From assembly GCA_002780065.1 (NCBI GenBank), contig PEWQ01000177.1, forward strand, positions 1 to 6,766: 6,766 nt of DNA, given 5' to 3'. The position numbers and the translations under genes were made by a program. A model generated the notes under the pieces. The model saw only the letters and a list, made by a program, of their open reading frames with translations. It ran no database searches and was not told where the DNA came from. The stretch comes from Candidatus Hydrogenedentes bacterium CG07_land_8_20_14_0_80_42_17. GTDB taxonomy: Bacteria > UBA8481. This document shows, one piece after another, positions 931 to 6,766 of the stretch (within the stretch, counting starts at the first letter, position 1; each line of letters starts with the position of its first letter).

Positions 931-2100
931 ATGAAGCCCGTAAAGGATAAAATTAGCCGGCGAGTTGCGGACACTTCGCCTAGCGGAATTCGTAAATTTT
1001 TCGAAATGGTGTTGGGTACGCCGGGAGTTCTTTCGCTCGGGGTAGGCGAGCCGGATTTTGTTACTCCAAAACCGTTCATCGATCGCGCCATTCGGGAACT
1101 TGGGGAAGGGATGACGAGCTACACATCGAATTACGGCCTGCTTGAATTGAGAGAAGCTATTTCAGATTATACGGTAAACAGGCTGAAAGGACCTCGATAC
1201 GATCCGAAGAAGGAGATACTTGTCACCATCGGAGTATCGGAGGCTGTAGACATCTGCATGCGTTCGATACTAGATCCGGGCGATGAAGTTATTATGGTGG
1301 ACCCGTGTTATGTCAGTTATCTTCCGATGGTCACGATGGCGGGTGGAGTTCCGAAGCTTGTGCATTCATCGATCGAAAATGGATTCAAGATAACTCCTGA
1401 AGATATTGAGTCTGCAATAACACCGAAAACGAAGGCGATAATTTTAGGGTATCCTGCAAATCCGACGGGCGCTTCTTTTAGCCGCAATGAACTGATTGCG
1501 ATCTCGGAGATTGCGGATTCAAAAGATATCATTGTAATTTCAGATGAGATTTATTGCAGGCTGACTTATACGGGGCCGCACACGGTTTTTTCGAGTCTAT
1601 CGGGAATGAAGGACAGAACGATATATTTGAACGGACTTTCGAAGGCTTACGCCATGACCGGCTGGCGCGTCGGATACGCATGCGGAAACGCGGAGATTAT
1701 TGAAGCTATGATGAAGGTCCATCAATATTCAATTATGTGCGCTCCAATTATGGGGCAGTTCGCCGCCATCGAAGCGCTTAAGAATGGATGGAGCGAAATG
1801 GAGCGAATGGTAGCGTCTTATGCGATGCGCCGCAGACTTATTTTGGATGGAATTAAAAAGATCGGTTTGAAATGTCATGAGCCTGAAGGCGCGTTTTACG
1901 TTTTTCCCTCAATAAAAGAGACCGGCTTGAGTTCAGATGAATTCTGCAGGAGATTATTAACCGAGGAAAAAGTTGTAGTGGTGCCTGGTTCAGCGTTTGG
2001 AGCGTGCGGAGAAGGACATATCAGACTCTGCTATGCTGCTTCAATCAATACAATTAACTCGGCATTGAAGAAGATAAAAGAATTTTTAAATAGGATCTGA
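931..2100 (+). CDS. PLP-dependent aminotransferase, class I/II (AspC-like fold type I)
   Basis: A 389-residue cytosolic aminotransferase that moves an amino group between an amino acid and a 2-oxo acid using pyridoxal phosphate. The N-terminus (SGIRKFFE...SLGVGEPDF) is typical. YTSNYGLLELREAI lies at about 64-77. The cofactor site shows YPANPTG with N177, SDEIY with D205 and Y208, and the Schiff-base lysine K238 in GLSKAYAMTGWRVGY, followed by phosphate-binding R246. R365 in GHIRLCYA is the expected substrate-carboxylate arginine. Length is normal and all key residues are present. The ATG follows the carbamate kinase TGA with no gap and has no clear Shine-Dalgarno, which suggests translational coupling; the start fits family N-termini. 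The sequence places it among the aspartate/aromatic aminotransferase-like enzymes, but the substrate cannot be read from it. Adjacency to carbamate kinase suggests a nitrogen-handling role, which is inference. Confidence 0.93.
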   Translation: MKPVKDKISRRVADTSPSGIRKFFEMVLGTPGVLSLGVGEPDFVTPKPFIDRAIRELGEGMTSYTSNYGLLELREAISDYTVNRLKGPRYDPKKEILVTIGVSEAVDICMRSILDPGDEVIMVDPCYVSYLPMVTMAGGVPKLVHSSIENGFKITPEDIESAITPKTKAIILGYPANPTGASFSRNELIAISEIADSKDIIVISDEIYCRLTYTGPHTVFSSLSGMKDRTIYLNGLSKAYAMTGWRVGYACGNAEIIEAMMKVHQYSIMCAPIMGQFAAIEALKNGWSEMERMVASYAMRRRLILDGIKKIGLKCHEPEGAFYVFPSIKETGLSSDEFCRRLLTEEKVVVVPGSAFGACGEGHIRLCYAASINTINSALKKIKEFLNRI

Positions 2101-2101
2101 G

Positions 2102-2121
2102 CTCTAATATTTCATTCAAAT
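2102..2121 (+). repeat. Left copy of 20-bp direct repeat flanking the TA module
   Basis: CTCTAATATTTCATTCAAAT is identical to 2712-2731. With the preceding four bases (TGAg here, TGAt in the other copy) the match is 23 of 24, and those four bases include the aminotransferase stop codon TGA at 2098-2100. Similarity ends at once on the right side. Confidence 0.9.
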
Positions 2122-2128
2122 AAAAAAA

Positions 2129-2154
2129 TTGACTGATATCCAAAAAAATATAAT
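2129..2154 (+). promoter_or_regulatory. Candidate promoter of the toxin-antitoxin operon
   Basis: TTGACT at 2129-2134 resembles a sigma-70 -35 box, and a perfect TATAAT lies at 2149-2154. The spacer is only 14 nt, shorter than the usual 16-18, so the pairing is uncertain; the lower-scoring TAATCT at 2151-2156 would give 16. Position just upstream of the antitoxin ribosome binding site fits a self-contained operon promoter. TA operons are usually repressed by antitoxin or complex binding here; the only short palindrome I see is GATATC at 2135-2140, between the two boxes. Confidence 0.45.
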
Positions 2155-2163
2155 CTGAAATAA

Positions 2164-2169
2164 GAGGAG
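2164..2169 (+). promoter_or_regulatory. Strong Shine-Dalgarno of the antitoxin gene
   Basis: GAGGAG lies 6 nt before the ATG at 2176 and decides that start over the in-frame ATG at 2191. It is the clearest ribosome binding site in the window; the toxin and the aminotransferase have no comparable one, which fits antitoxin being made in excess of toxin. Confidence 0.75.
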
Positions 2170-2175
2170 ATTGCT

Positions 2176-2382
2176 ATGGGAACTTCATTTATGGCATTGG
2201 ATACAGAATACATTATTGATAAAAATGGGAAGCATAAAGCTGTAGTATTAGATATCAGGCAGTATAAAAAATTATTGAGCTTAATTGAAGAAACAAAAAT
2301 AATAAAAATGATAAATAAAGGCGAGAGAGAATATGGAATGGCTAAAATTAAACCTATTAGCTCACTCGCAGAATTAGAATAA
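2176..2382 (+). CDS. Antitoxin of type II TA module, Phd/YefM-like
   Basis: A 68-residue protein, small and charged as expected of antitoxins. The N-terminal half (residues 12-34, YIIDKNGKHKAVVLDIRQYKKLL) has the 'sequence-dependent repressor' look of Phd/YefM-type antitoxins: a short beta strand pair ending in AVVLDIxxYxxLL. The C-terminal part (about 40-68) is lysine- and glutamate-rich and would be the toxin-neutralising tail. It precedes a RelE/ParE-family toxin by 4 nt, the normal antitoxin-first order. The start at 2176 is supported by GAGGAG at 2164-2169. Codon use is very AT-rich compared with the aminotransferase next door, consistent with acquisition. By family it should bind and inhibit the toxin and repress its own promoter. 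The family is inferred from pattern and context; exact subfamily (Phd/YefM or RelB-like) is open. Confidence 0.78.
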   Translation: MGTSFMALDTEYIIDKNGKHKAVVLDIRQYKKLLSLIEETKIIKMINKGEREYGMAKIKPISSLAELE

Positions 2383-2386
2383 TTTT

Positions 2387-2650
2387 TTGATACGCAAAGT
2401 TTACCCTACAAGCCATTTTAGAAATTCTTTTAAGAAAATTCCTAATCATGTAAAAAAATCTGCAGTTGAAAAAGAAAAGGAATTCATAGCAAATCCATTT
2501 TCTACAAAACTCAGAACACATAAATTAAAAGGAAAATTAAAAGATTATTGGGCGTTTTCAGTTGGATATGAATATAGAATACTATTCAGATTTATCGATG
2601 ACGAAACTGTTTTGTATTTTGATATTGGAACGCACGAAATTTATAGGTAA
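2387..2650 (+). CDS. RelE/ParE-superfamily toxin (probable mRNA interferase), TTG start
   Basis: An 87-residue basic protein of normal length for RelE/ParE toxins. Visible signatures are THKLKGKLKDYWAFSV (44-59), YEYRILFRF (61-69) with R64 and R68, and the C-terminal DIGTHEIYR (79-87). The histidine H83 and Y86 correspond to the conserved GTHD-Y end of YafQ/RelE-type toxins, which cut mRNA at the ribosome. The upstream frame is open only from 2378 and contains no ATG or GTG, so the start is TTG at 2387, 4 nt after the antitoxin stop, with no Shine-Dalgarno. Translation is therefore probably coupled to the antitoxin and weak. No frameshift or internal stop is seen, so the toxin looks intact. 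A ParE-like gyrase poison is the alternative, but the KLKGKLKDYW...YRI pattern favours the ribonuclease group. Confidence 0.85.
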   Translation: MIRKVYPTSHFRNSFKKIPNHVKKSAVEKEKEFIANPFSTKLRTHKLKGKLKDYWAFSVGYEYRILFRFIDDETVLYFDIGTHEIYR

Positions 2651-2711
2651 GAATTCTAAAATTATTTAAATTTTATGACTGAAAAAAGAATATTAATATC
2701 TGATAATTGAT

Positions 2712-2731
2712 CTCTAATATTTCATTCAAAT
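2712..2731 (+). repeat. Right copy of 20-bp direct repeat; contains stop codon of the GspN-like gene
   Basis: Identical to 2102-2121. Bases 2722-2731 of this copy are coding on the minus strand (stop TGA as complement of TCA at 2722-2724, then codons for E, F and part of S). This copy therefore extends naturally into the gene, while the left copy is an orphan fragment of the gene's 3' end. Confidence 0.9.
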
Positions 2732-3555
2732 GAAGATTGAGGAGATGATAGAGCTCCTGTCATGCGCAATCCCAATGAGCCGTCTGGCTTAAGAATTTTA
2801 TTAATTGCACGATCAGAACTTGTGATTTGATTTAGCCAGTTTCTTTGTGGAAAGAGTTTGAGATGGATATCTATGGGCGACTCTAATGGATTGCGCCCGG
2901 CCGAGATCATTCCTTCTCCGCTGATTCGAACATTGCCTCCTATGCTTTGCACTCGGCTAATTTTTATAGCGCCATTTGCGGCGGAAAAAAGAATATTGAG
3001 TTCATCGACTTCTATCTTTGGTAAAGTTATCCCAGCCATTATGTAGTTTTTAAGTGAAAAATCTTTTACACGTATTTCACCGTCAAACGAGAGATTAGAG
3101 CTACTTTCGGAAAAACCTATTTTTGTTGAAAAATTCATTTTGCCATTAATTTGAGAAGAAGTATTTGATTTAAAAAGCTCTTTGAGCTCGATATCATTTG
3201 CTGAAGAATAGATATGTTTTTGGTCGAAGTCTAAACTAATTTGACCTTTGAAAACCGAGGCATTTACCCAACCCGACAGGTTCCCAGTCAGTGCTTGGAG
3301 TTTTGGAGTGTAAATGAGCTCATCAAAGATGAAAGAAGTTTTCTTTTGATCATTTGGAGTGATGATTAGATTTATCGCCGATAGCGAAAATGGAAAACTA
3401 TATTTTATTGATTCAGCTTTTATTTTTATTCCTGTTTTATTTTCGATAAATGGAAAAACAGTTCTTGAGACAATGAGATCGTAAGGAAGAAAAAAGGGGA
3501 GGGTTGCGATAAATGAAAACAGCAGAATAAGGAAGATATTTAGATATTTAGACAT
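2722..3555 (-). CDS. GspN-like / AsmA-fold periplasmic protein with N-terminal membrane anchor
   Basis: A 277-residue protein with one N-terminal hydrophobic stretch (about residues 5-24, NIFLILLFSFIATLPFFLPY) and no other clear membrane segment. It should be an inner-membrane-anchored periplasmic protein. After the anchor comes the pattern FPFIENKTGIKIKAESIKYSFPFSLSAINLII, then repeated short beta-strand stretches, and a C-terminal GSLGLRMTGALSSPQ. This order resembles GspN proteins linked to type II secretion and, more broadly, AsmA-like proteins of the diderm envelope. No other secretion gene is nearby, so a secretion role is only inferred. The start at 3555 is the first Met before the anchor; no good Shine-Dalgarno is seen. 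The gene converges on the TA module, and its stop lies inside the right direct repeat. It is divergent from the adenylate cyclase. Composition is AT-rich in parts. It appears full length. Confidence 0.62.
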   Translation of the reverse strand: MSKYLNIFLILLFSFIATLPFFLPYDLIVSRTVFPFIENKTGIKIKAESIKYSFPFSLSAINLIITPNDQKKTSFIFDELIYTPKLQALTGNLSGWVNASVFKGQISLDFDQKHIYSSANDIELKELFKSNTSSQINGKMNFSTKIGFSESSSNLSFDGEIRVKDFSLKNYIMAGITLPKIEVDELNILFSAANGAIKISRVQSIGGNVRISGEGMISAGRNPLESPIDIHLKLFPQRNWLNQITSSDRAINKILKPDGSLGLRMTGALSSPQSSFE

Positions 3556-3622: not shown

Positions 3623-6127
3623 ATGTTTGATAATCACATAATGATCTTTTATGACTTATGCGGGAATGCAAATAGGCGCAGATTGGAGATGCTTGAGGAT
3701 GCGCTGACGACTTTAAAGTGGAAGGCATTTTCAGCAATCCCGGCATTACTGCACTTCAACCATCCTTTCCTTCCTGGATGCGAAGACGGACTTAGTCCTC
3801 ATGGTTTTATCAGGCCTTCATTTGTTACCGACACATTTCATCGAGCAGGAGAGTTTTTTCCTGAGCTTCGCAGTAAAACTGCTCCGCCTCGAAAATCTCA
3901 GTTGCTTGGATTATATGCGATGGGATCGGTCGGAACGGCTTTTTTTACTTCTGCATCCGACATAGATTTTTGGGTTATTCTTGACTCGAAATCTTTTCAA
4001 AAGCCTGAACGAGGACGATTAGAGAGAAAACTTAGAGCAGTTGAAAAGTGGGCGATTGATACTGCAGGGCTCGAAATACATTTCTACGTTCACGAGCTTT
4101 CTGAAATTCAGAGAGCGACTTTTTCTTATGACAGCGAGAACGCCGGAGAATTCGGAGCGATATTGAAAGAAGAGTTTTTGAGAACAGCCGTGTATGTTGC
4201 CGGATTCGAACCGTCGCATTGGCATGGTGAAGAACCGTCGATAGATTTCGGGGCGATCCCGCGGCTTTCCACTGATCAATATCTTTCAGCCTGCCTCACT
4301 CAGCTCGATAAAGCATTTACAAAACCATTCAAGTCTTCATTGAAGATTGCTTTATTGAGGAGTCTTGCGGCGCGGCCGACTGAAAAGATGCCGGCGGAAA
4401 TATTTTGGGAGCGTATTGGACTTGGCATTCAGCCTGATCCTTACATTCTACTGCTCGATTATCTCTGGAATCATTTTCAGAAGATCGAGTCTGAGGAACA
4501 GCACAATTTTTTGAAACAACTTTTATATTTGAAGATGATTGCGGAGGAAAATTCTCCTGAGCGTGCGCGGCGCAATAAGGACAGAATAATTGCGGCTCGA
4601 TTTCAGGCGGTTGGCAAACCGATCGATCTGGATTATTTGGATAATTTTTTTGACTGGCCTTTCGAAAGAAGAAAGGGTTTATCAGATGAAATAACAAGGT
4701 ATCTGCAGGACTCGCTCAGAGAGATTAGTTCTTACCTGGGTACTTCTCAAATTGATCCGTCTAGGCTCAGAAGGCTTATGAGAAAAGTGATGTTGAGAAG
4801 AGCGGGAGGCGATGTTCTTGAGAGCATAACTTTTTCGGATGTGCCGTCGAAAGGAGAACAGGTCATTTCGATAGTTTTTAACGAATCGAATGAAGATTGG
4901 CTCTTGTCTTTGGAACGTTTTTCCGGCAGACCTGATCTCGATAAAATGAAAACTGAACGAAATGCTAAGACTTTGGTTTTGCTGATTGCTTTTGCGATAT
5001 ACAACAATTTGTTTAATCGAAACAAAACAGATTTGCGAATTTATCCTTCGAATTTTTCGCCAAGAAGATTGAACGAAATTATTGATTCGATAGAAAAGTT
5101 AATTGCTATGGAGACGAATGAAAATTGGCTGGATACCCCCTCAAAACCCTTCAAACATCTTATTGTCCTTGAAGAACCTGAACCTAGAAACAGCGAGTCC
5201 AGAATGGTTACAGTTCTTACAAAGACAACATGGGGTTTAATTGAGGTAAGGACTTATAGAGGAAAAAAAGCGATGGCAATAATGCTGACTGATTTGCTCT
5301 CATTGCCTTTGCCGGATGTAAAAACGGAATACATTTTGGATCCTATCCAAGGTCCCGACCCGGCAATACTCGAAAATATTTTTTTGAAGAATGATGAAGA
5401 AGAGGATAAAGAGACCAGCACTATTATGATCGTCCAGGATGTAAACGAATATATTTTGGTATGCAGAGGCAAGACAGTATTAATCAACGAAGTTCAAGAG
5501 CTTATTTTTAGTCTCGGCCAGTTTGAAGGAAAAGTCAGCTTGAAAGGATTGCCTTCAAATGAAACAGGACAGATGCTCTGCGAAATTTTCGGAAGGTCAG
5601 CGAGGAGCAGAGCGTCGATTTTCAGATTTCAGGAAGGAGGGCGAGTGACATTTTTACTTACCGATTCTGACGGAAGATGCGATTCATGGGAGTCTGACAA
5701 AGATGATGCTTCGTATAATTTGAGAGCAAACTACAGATACGTATATGAATTACTGAATGGAAAGCCGTTCGATTGTTATTCAGTGGAATATAGAAGAGGT
5801 ATGAGAGACGCATGGAATTTCAGCAAAATACCGATGACAGAACTTTCGTCCGTTACATTGGATTTAAGTTTTGTTTTAGATTCGACAGGTGTAGTTAAAG
5901 TCACGCTAGGAAATAAAACTATTGAGCAAGACTCAATGGATGGAGCATGCATTCTGGTTGCAAATCTGATTCGCGCCGCAAGAAAAGTTAACAGGTATTA
6001 TCCGCCTTACTTGACTAGTCTGAAATTCCCGATGGAGTTAGCGGGGAAGATTCCAATTACTGAAGCAATGCGTAAAAAGAGAGAGATTGAAACGAGGATC
6101 GGTTCAATTTTGCAAGGGCTGTATTAG
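3623..6127 (+). CDS. cyaA: Class I (CyaA-type) adenylate cyclase
   Basis: An 834-residue protein (E. coli CyaA is 848) expected to make cyclic AMP from ATP in the cytosol. The N-terminal catalytic half carries the class I pattern: IPALLHFNHPFLPG (39-52), then LYAMGSVGTAFFTSASDIDFWVI (97-119), a nucleotidyltransferase-type GS...DxD with G101-S102 and the metal-binding pair D113/D115. LEIHFYV (150-156) and LKEEFLRTAVYVAG (181-194) follow, matching the order in enterobacterial CyaA. DPYILLLDYLW (272-282) and the LLYLKMIAEENSPERARRNK stretch (300-319) continue the match. The C-terminal half (about 400-834), regulatory in E. coli, is weakly conserved; I cannot identify known control residues in it. 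ATG 3623 was chosen as the longest start; ATG 3641 (residue 7) also fits the family N-terminus. No CRP gene or cAMP site is visible here. A RAYT transposase unit follows the gene. Confidence 0.86.
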   Translation: MFDNHIMIFYDLCGNANRRRLEMLEDALTTLKWKAFSAIPALLHFNHPFLPGCEDGLSPHGFIRPSFVTDTFHRAGEFFPELRSKTAPPRKSQLLGLYAMGSVGTAFFTSASDIDFWVILDSKSFQKPERGRLERKLRAVEKWAIDTAGLEIHFYVHELSEIQRATFSYDSENAGEFGAILKEEFLRTAVYVAGFEPSHWHGEEPSIDFGAIPRLSTDQYLSACLTQLDKAFTKPFKSSLKIALLRSLAARPTEKMPAEIFWERIGLGIQPDPYILLLDYLWNHFQKIESEEQHNFLKQLLYLKMIAEENSPERARRNKDRIIAARFQAVGKPIDLDYLDNFFDWPFERRKGLSDEITRYLQDSLREISSYLGTSQIDPSRLRRLMRKVMLRRAGGDVLESITFSDVPSKGEQVISIVFNESNEDWLLSLERFSGRPDLDKMKTERNAKTLVLLIAFAIYNNLFNRNKTDLRIYPSNFSPRRLNEIIDSIEKLIAMETNENWLDTPSKPFKHLIVLEEPEPRNSESRMVTVLTKTTWGLIEVRTYRGKKAMAIMLTDLLSLPLPDVKTEYILDPIQGPDPAILENIFLKNDEEEDKETSTIMIVQDVNEYILVCRGKTVLINEVQELIFSLGQFEGKVSLKGLPSNETGQMLCEIFGRSARSRASIFRFQEGGRVTFLLTDSDGRCDSWESDKDDASYNLRANYRYVYELLNGKPFDCYSVEYRRGMRDAWNFSKIPMTELSSVTLDLSFVLDSTGVVKVTLGNKTIEQDSMDGACILVANLIRAARKVNRYYPPYLTSLKFPMELAGKIPITEAMRKKREIETRIGSILQGLY

Positions 6128-6159
6128 TAAGGCTATAAGCGAGAGGCAAAAAAAATGAG

Positions 6160-6180
6160 GCACAGGCGCCACGCCTGTGC
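6160..6180. repeat. REP-like GC-rich hairpin (9-bp perfect stem, 3-nt loop)
   Basis: GCACAGGCG (6160-6168) and CGCCTGTGC (6172-6180) are perfect complements around CCA. It lies 33 nt after the cyclase stop and 130 nt before a RAYT gene, so it is a good candidate for the REP-type palindrome such transposases recognise; TGAG directly precedes the stem (6156-6159). On the forward strand no T-run follows, so it is not a normal terminator for the cyclase. On the minus strand a run of eight T (complement of 6148-6155) follows 4 nt after the stem, so it might stop leftward transcripts. Confidence 0.65.
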
Positions 6181-6200
6181 AAGTCAGGGCAAGGAAATCA

Positions 6201-6310: not shown

Positions 6311-6766
6311 ATGGCAAGAATAGCAAGAATTGTAATACCAAACATACCCCACCACATTGTCCAACGTGGCAATAGATCTCAAAAAGTTTTCTTCAGTAGT
6401 AAGGATAAGGAATTTTATCTTAACTTGCTACATAAGCATGCCCATGAGTCAGGATTAAGTCTTTGGGCGTATTGCCTTATGGATAATCATATTCATTTGA
6501 TTGTTGTTCCTGAAAAAGAAGATAGTTTGGCTAAAGGAATAGGTGACACAAATAAATATTATACGCGCATGGTCAATTTCAGAGAGAATTGGAGAGGATA
6601 TCTTTGGCAAGGAAGGTTTAGTTCCTTTCCTTTAGACGGAAAATATCTTTATGCGGCAATCCGTTATGTAGAGCGTAATCCGGTGAGGGCTGGTATTGTA
6701 GAAAAAGCGGAGGATTATGAGTTTTCTAGCGCAAGGGCGCATGTTTACAAAAAGAAAGACCGCCTA
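6311..6766 (+). CDS. REP-associated tyrosine transposase (IS200-like Y1/RAYT), 3' end cut by window edge
   Basis: The frame is open from ATG 6311 to the window end (152 codons, no stop). It encodes a HUH single-strand transposase of the Y1 superfamily, which nicks DNA at hairpins through a tyrosine. Visible signatures are the N-terminal IPHHIVQRGN (12-21), YCLMDNHIHLIVVP (54-67) with the metal-binding HxH at H60/H62, and NKYYTRMVNF (81-90) with the catalytic tyrosine at Y83 or Y84. LWQGRF (98-103), YVERNPVRAGIV (119-130) and the trailing DYEFSSARAH complete the pattern. These last motifs mark the RAYT group rather than classical IS200/IS605 TnpA. Most members are about 150-250 residues, so the missing part may be short or moderate. 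All active-site residues are present. The GC-rich hairpin at 6160-6180 is a likely cognate REP element. RAYT genes are often single-copy and domesticated, so active movement is not shown. Confidence 0.92.
   Translation, partial: MARIARIVIPNIPHHIVQRGNRSQKVFFSSKDKEFYLNLLHKHAHESGLSLWAYCLMDNHIHLIVVPEKEDSLAKGIGDTNKYYTRMVNFRENWRGYLWQGRFSSFPLDGKYLYAAIRYVERNPVRAGIVEKAEDYEFSSARAHVYKKKDRL

What the first reader, a model, noticed from the sequence alone, without database searches (positions are those of the whole stretch)
2102..2731. Toxin-antitoxin module bracketed by an exact 20-bp direct repeat: an insertion with no recombinase
The repeat CTCTAATATTTCATTCAAAT occurs exactly twice, immediately outside the TA pair, and extends to 23 of 24 with TGA on its left. 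The right copy carries the GspN-like gene's stop and last codons; the left copy is a stray fragment of that gene end beside the aminotransferase stop. Collapsing the repeats rebuilds two complete convergent genes 11 bp apart. This is the pattern of a cassette that entered and duplicated about 20-24 bp, longer than most transposon target duplications, yet only toxin and antitoxin are inside. It may be a non-autonomous mobile TA cassette. Repeats are observed; mobility is inferred.
Basis: partly seen in the sequence, partly recalled or inferred. Interest (0 to 1): 0.72.

Follow-up and report, generated by a model that had tools for sequence, protein, structure and literature searches.

The report
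Toxin-antitoxin pair inserted with duplicated target
A small bacterial toxin-antitoxin gene pair slipped between two neighbouring genes and left a copied scrap of its landing site on each side, and at least five other small inserts in the same genome, mostly toxin-antitoxin or defence-like genes, did the same with scraps of different lengths, which suggests a general way for such genes to settle in chromosomes without any mobility gene.

Summary
CTCTAATATTTCATTCAAAT occurs exactly at 2102-2121 and 2712-2731 and nowhere else in the window. It brackets a RelB-like/RelE-type pair, and collapsing it restores two convergent genes whose stops lie 11 bp apart. It is not a one-off: a scan of 1.04 Mb (44%) of the same genome found six compact inserts (0.6-1.2 kb) bracketed by unique direct repeats spanning 20 to 208 bp. 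Four carry toxin-antitoxin pairs from different families, one a BRO-N candidate defence gene, and one a protease plus a probable HicB remnant. In the one case where a relative could be compared (C82), the flanking genes are adjacent there without the pair. The inserts share no ends, inverted termini or transposase, and duplication length varies, so "a mobile TA cassette with its own ends" is not supported. The pattern matches "insertion with long target duplication", described for restriction-modification genes. At two sites one junction runs into a diverged homologue of the flanking gene while the other is abrupt, which favours recombination that is homologous at one end and illegitimate at the other. 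For the window's own insert the mechanism is undecided: no close relative with an empty site could be found.

The parts
2102..2121 (+). left copy of the 20-bp direct repeat: stray copy of the GspN-like gene end
   Evidence: exact match to 2712-2731
2712..2731 (+). right copy of the 20-bp direct repeat; contains the stop and last codons of the GspN-like gene
2122..2711 (+). inserted segment, 590 bp, 26% G+C (sampled host DNA 42%); no terminal inverted repeat, no transposase
2176..2382 (+). antitoxin, 68 aa, RelB-like (PF18506); preceded by AAGAGGAG
2387..2650 (+). toxin, 87 aa, RelE/StbE-ParE-YafQ superfamily, TTG start
2681..2711 (+). stretch before the right repeat weakly resembling the aminotransferase 3' end (2073-2101); possible diverged extension of the duplication to about 50 bp
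   Evidence: p = 0.011 by shuffling; weak, AT-rich
931..2100 (+). aminotransferase class I/II, left neighbour, intact
2722..3555 (-). GspN-like protein (TIGR04411), right neighbour, intact

Best explanation
The RelB/RelE-type pair entered the chromosome as passive DNA at the junction of two convergent genes, and the junction was duplicated, so both neighbours stayed intact. It is one of at least six events of this kind in the genome ('insertion with long target duplication'). The most likely mechanism is that an incoming fragment recombined with the chromosome homologously at one end, in a flanking gene shared with the donor, and was joined illegitimately at the other end. Where that second joint falls before the anchor, a stretch of target is present twice. 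Insertions that instead deleted a gene end would be lost, so surviving copies carry duplications. Once in, a toxin-antitoxin pair resists loss. Shown: the repeat, restoration of both gene ends, recurrence, variable duplication length, the empty arrangement at one site in a relative, and at two other sites one junction running into a diverged homologue of the flanking gene. Inferred: uptake of donor DNA, the order of joints, addiction as the cause of retention, and that this module used the same route.
For: Repeat and gene-end restoration. Recurrence: C82 RelE/YafQ pair, exact 60 bp within 114 bp at 87%; C55 Phd-like/PIN pair, 67 bp; C58 DUF433/DUF5615 pair, 208 bp at 89%; C19 BRO-N gene matching PDC-S13, 68 bp; C46 aspartyl protease plus probable HicB remnant, 60 bp. 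Genome scan: six compact inserts among ten loci with non-dispersed direct repeats of 18 bp or more, against one inverted repeat. Relative G001 has the C82 flanking genes adjacent. One-sided homology: in C82 the insert-side part of one copy encodes a related but different C-terminus (SNFEILRTIDADKIHYVAVALETLLGL against ENFEALRTIDADVIHFTASALETLLGL) beside a 60-bp exact block; in C55 the hybrid gene continues with synonymous changes (CTT..AAA against CTC..AAG) and then a different tail.
Against: No empty site is known for this module; the nearest held genome is of the same order and has a different gene neighbourhood. In the window itself the one-sided homology is weak (p = 0.011). C46 and G049 show sharp exact repeats with no diverged tract, which a staggered break would explain as well. 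Gene conversion between the two copies could mimic the C82 mosaic. No competence gene was seen in the sampled 44% (E. coli queries only, not a real test). Three of the contigs carrying bracketed inserts (C82, C55, C46) were fetched because of TA or PIN hits, so the sample is not fully unbiased.
Confidence: 0.55

Rival explanations
1. Insertion into a long staggered double-strand break: broken ends with 20-200 nt overhangs are filled in, foreign DNA is captured by end joining, and the filled-in target appears on both sides.
For: Sharp exact repeats at both ends at C46 and G049; variable lengths; no shared ends.
Against: Does not explain the diverged homologous tract on the insert side of only one copy at C82 and C55. 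End-joining genes were not looked for.
Confidence: 0.22
2. A transposase acting in trans on the TA module, with an unusually long and variable target duplication.
For: Transposon families with long target duplications are recorded or recalled (IS1202-like; IS1634-like, from memory); a Y1 REP-associated transposase lies 3.6 kb away.
Against: No terminal inverted repeats, no shared ends among six inserts, one copy only; Y1 transposases are not known to make long target duplications (general knowledge).
Confidence: 0.08
3. The module arrived already flanked by the duplication through ordinary homologous recombination with a relative that carried the whole arrangement, so the original event is older and elsewhere.
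For: The C82 fragment looks like a diverged relative's gene end; exact cores could be recent exchange.
Against: Only moves the insertion event to an ancestor; does not explain why each duplication fits the local gene ends of this genome.
Confidence: 0.12
4. Assembly artefact in a metagenome-derived genome.
For: 207 contigs; a short run of N inside one insert; exact repeats of 59-68 bp are close to common assembler word lengths.
Against: No N at the junctions; copies differ in sequence at C58 and C82; the same pattern occurs in other assemblies; inserts are mostly TA or defence-like genes.
Confidence: 0.03

Closest known systems
Insertion with long target duplication of restriction-modification genes (Nobusato et al. 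2000, Gene 259:99; cited in PMC3874152 and PMC3031569)
   Same: Gene module without mobility gene, direct repeats of tens to about 100 bp derived from the target, variable length, neighbours kept intact.
   Different: Cargo is toxin-antitoxin or single defence-like genes; at least six events in one genome; two sites show one junction inside a diverged homologue.
Homology-facilitated illegitimate recombination (de Vries and Wackernagel 2002; Prudhomme et al. 2002; proposed for Vibrio T6SS immunity arrays, PMC5361080)
   Same: One junction homologous, the other illegitimate; foreign module added beside a conserved gene end.
   Different: Here inferred from sequence only, and recognised by the duplication; donor unknown.
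RelBE/ParDE-type chromosomal toxin-antitoxin loci
   Same: Two-gene antitoxin-toxin operon with RelB-like and RelE-type proteins.
   Different: Bracketed by a target duplication; nine E. coli K-12 TA/dinD loci show none.
MITEs and other non-autonomous transposons
   Same: Short insert, no transposase, direct repeats at the borders.
   Different: No inverted termini, no family of copies, no constant duplication length.

Membership tests
Insertion with long target duplication | Long direct repeats derived from the target, not from the insert | tested here: met
   Right copy is the working GspN-like gene end; collapsing restores both genes
Insertion with long target duplication | Duplication length varies between events | tested here: met
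   20, 60-114, 67, 60, 68-81, 208 bp
Insertion with long target duplication | Empty site with a single copy in a relative, for this insert | not testable with these tools
   No close relative held; at C82 the flanking genes are adjacent in G001
Insertion with long target duplication | Cargo is a restriction-modification unit | tested here: not met
   Cargo is a toxin-antitoxin pair; in the literature read here the pattern is stated for RM genes only
Homology-facilitated illegitimate recombination | One junction lies in a homologous, donor-like tract, the other is abrupt | tested here: inconclusive
   Seen at C82 and C55; in the window only weak (p = 0.011)
Homology-facilitated illegitimate recombination | Microhomology at the illegitimate joint | not testable with these tools
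   Needs the donor sequence
Non-autonomous transposon / MITE | Terminal inverted repeats | tested here: not met
   No insert exceeds shuffles (p 0.2-0.92)
Non-autonomous transposon / MITE | Multiple copies with the same ends | tested here: not met
   One copy in the genome; no shared ends
Integron gene cassette | attC site and cassette array | not tested
   No array in the window; attC not searched
Type II toxin-antitoxin, RelBE/ParDE superfamily | Antitoxin and toxin domains in one operon | tested here: met
   PF18506 above cut-off and TIGR02385 above cut-off, ORFs 4 bp apart
Type II toxin-antitoxin, RelBE/ParDE superfamily | Toxicity neutralised by the partner | not testable with these tools
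   Needs expression

The most novel reading that the evidence does not exclude
Toxin-antitoxin and single-gene defence modules colonise chromosomes by a common route that needs no mobility gene: one-ended homologous, one-ended illegitimate integration at tightly packed gene borders, recognisable by long variable target duplications, and made visible because these cargos resist loss.
Probability: 0.35. Interest if true: 0.72.

Novelty: new variant of a known kind. Interest (0 to 1): 0.5.

Why it matters
How toxin-antitoxin pairs without mobility genes reach new chromosomal sites is largely unexplained. A recognisable scar gives a way to date and count such events, to identify donor flanks, and to test whether restriction-modification, toxin-antitoxin and other defence genes share one entry route. 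It also explains how insertions into overlapping gene ends leave both neighbours intact.

Tried and rejected
(1) EcoRV-like restriction-modification genes on C55 between 59-bp repeats first looked like another case; the repeat is a dispersed AT-rich element with dozens of copies, so dropped. (2) 77-bp repeat on C138: dispersed element with inverted ends, dropped. (3) Simple decay of the non-working copy: at C82 all divergence lies in one tract next to a 60-bp exact block, although non-working sequence extends into the exact block on both copies; gene conversion remains possible. Synonymous excess pooled over sites is suggestive but not decisive, because the working copy also drifts. (4) Empty site for the window: the aminotransferase scan of 84,980 genomes gave only relatives at 48-59% identity; the GspN-like gene of G001 has other neighbours. 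(5) Looking for congeners of G049 to see an empty site: none held. (6) E. coli K-12: nine TA/dinD loci, none bracketed by 14 bp or more. (8) Plasmids gave three distant RelE matches, phages none.

Full report
WHAT IS THERE. The window is a complete 6,766-bp contig (C2) of a 2.39-Mb, 207-contig draft genome whose nearest held relative is of the same order only. The 20-bp repeat is exact at 2102-2121 and 2712-2731 and unique in the window at up to three mismatches, with no match in 200 shuffles. Between the copies lie an antitoxin (2176-2382, RelB-like) and a toxin (2387-2650, RelE/StbE-ParE-YafQ superfamily) and nothing else. The left neighbour is an intact aminotransferase ending at 2100; the right neighbour an intact GspN-like gene ending at 2722 on the other strand. 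Removing one repeat copy and the insert leaves two convergent genes with 11 nt between stops. The GspN-like protein matches its family model almost to the last residue, so the right copy is original and the left copy is the duplicate.

IT IS NOT ALONE. The second RelE relative in this genome (C82) is also bracketed: an exact 60-bp core inside 114 bp at 87% identity, 923 bp apart. A Phd-like/PIN pair on C55 sits between exact 67-bp repeats. Stretches covering 1.04 Mb (44%) of the genome gave three more: a BRO-N gene on C19 that matches the candidate defence family PDC-S13 between 68-bp repeats; an aspartyl-protease gene, a small unknown protein and a probable HicB remnant on C46 between 60-bp repeats (the HicB reading is by eye, no Pfam match); and a DUF433/DUF5615 PIN-like pair on C58 between repeats of 208 bp at 89%. 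A uniform scan for direct repeats of at least 18 bp, 250-3,000 bp apart and not dispersed, found ten loci. These six are the compact ones; the others are a repetitive gene (C169), a 19-bp pair (C11) and two 23-bp pairs of unclear meaning (C29, C200). The same scan for inverted repeats found one, of 18 bp. Several of these contigs were fetched because of TA hits, so the proportion is biased upward; C19 and C58 came from stretches chosen blindly. Two further TA loci of this genome (C92, C101) are not bracketed, though C101 lies near a contig end.

EMPTY SITE. For the window's insert no empty site could be found. For C82, the same-order genome G001 carries the two flanking genes next to each other, about 100 bp apart, without the toxin-antitoxin pair.

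OTHER GENOMES. Around 29 ParE-family toxins from other genomes the longest bracketing exact repeat was 20 bp or more in five; around 30 SmpB genes from the same set of genomes none reached 15 bp; around 29 Phd-family antitoxins one did. Repeats in other genomes were not filtered for dispersed elements, so five is an upper estimate; three were inspected by alignment (77 bp exact; 264 aligned columns at 93%; 141 aligned columns at 86% covering the end of etfB). Nine TA or dinD loci of E. coli K-12 showed none. So the scar is recurrent but not universal.

MECHANISM. The six inserts share neither ends nor inverted termini and have duplications of 20 to 208 bp, which argues against one transposon. 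Two sites are informative. At C82 the insert-side part of one copy encodes a related but different C-terminus of the flanking gene (61% identity over 44 residues) and then switches to 60 bp of exact identity, while the other end of the insert is abrupt. At C55 the gene on the left continues past the exact repeat with synonymous differences for four codons and then a different tail. This is what recombination anchored in a homologous gene at one end and joined illegitimately at the other would leave. Gene conversion between the copies could imitate the first, and break fill-in explains the sharp cases (C46, G049) as well. In the window the 29 bp before each repeat are weakly alike (p = 0.011), compatible with the same mosaic but not proof. 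I therefore put the one-ended homologous model first, at about even odds.

WHAT IS KNOWN. Insertion with long, variable target duplication was proposed from Helicobacter pylori comparisons for restriction-modification genes (Nobusato et al. 2000; not held, cited in PMC1643837, PMC3031569 and PMC3874152). A review on RM and TA systems states it for RM units. In the searches made here no paper was found that states it for toxin-antitoxin pairs, but only open-access papers could be searched. One-ended homologous integration is established experimentally in competent bacteria (cited in PMC5361080). Hence: a known kind of event, with a different cargo and some new evidence on how it happens.

LIMITS. 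Draft genome, 44% read, no reads or coverage, no close relative, mechanism inferred from sequence only.

Noticed in passing
6158-6181 and 6311-6766: A REP-like palindrome (GGCACAGGCGCCACGCCTGTGC) upstream of a REP-associated Y1 tyrosine transposase that runs off the contig; a related copy (38%) lies on contig C12 (L036).
   Followed up: partly
L045 1-3200 (contig C55): EcoRV-like restriction enzyme and D12-class methyltransferase genes (named by eye) between two copies of a 59-bp AT-rich element that has dozens of copies in the genome, often at contig ends.
   Followed up: partly
L201 4835-4963 and 9238-9366 (contig C138): Element of about 130 bp with inverted ends GGGTCAGGCTTGAAC/GTTCAAGCCTGACCC, dispersed in the genome: probable MITE.
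   Followed up: partly
L134 1433-3515 (contig C29): 23-bp exact repeat, one copy inside an amylase-like gene and one beyond a MazEF-like pair; does not fit a simple insertion.
   Followed up: no
L165 145-2616 (contig C200): 23-bp exact repeat around three metabolic-type genes (squalene synthase-like, response regulator, GalT-like); could be a larger insert with target duplication.
   Followed up: no
L015 1-96 (contig C197): Third RelE relative (66% identity over 32 residues) cut by the contig start; flanks could not be tested.
   Followed up: partly
L228 565-2764 (genome G002): Two TA pairs and a small DUF5678-like gene stacked beside etfB, with a diverged copy (86%) of the etfB end between them; changed codons are mostly synonymous (7 of 11), as if from a related genome.
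   Followed up: partly
3623-6127: Class I adenylate cyclase next to a GspN-like gene; the same two genes are neighbours in G001, there in tandem rather than divergent.
   Followed up: no
L024 1895-2000 (contig C55): Short tandem repeat (about 17 bp, GATACCGCACGCATCTT) at the end of the PIN toxin gene inside the insert.
   Followed up: no
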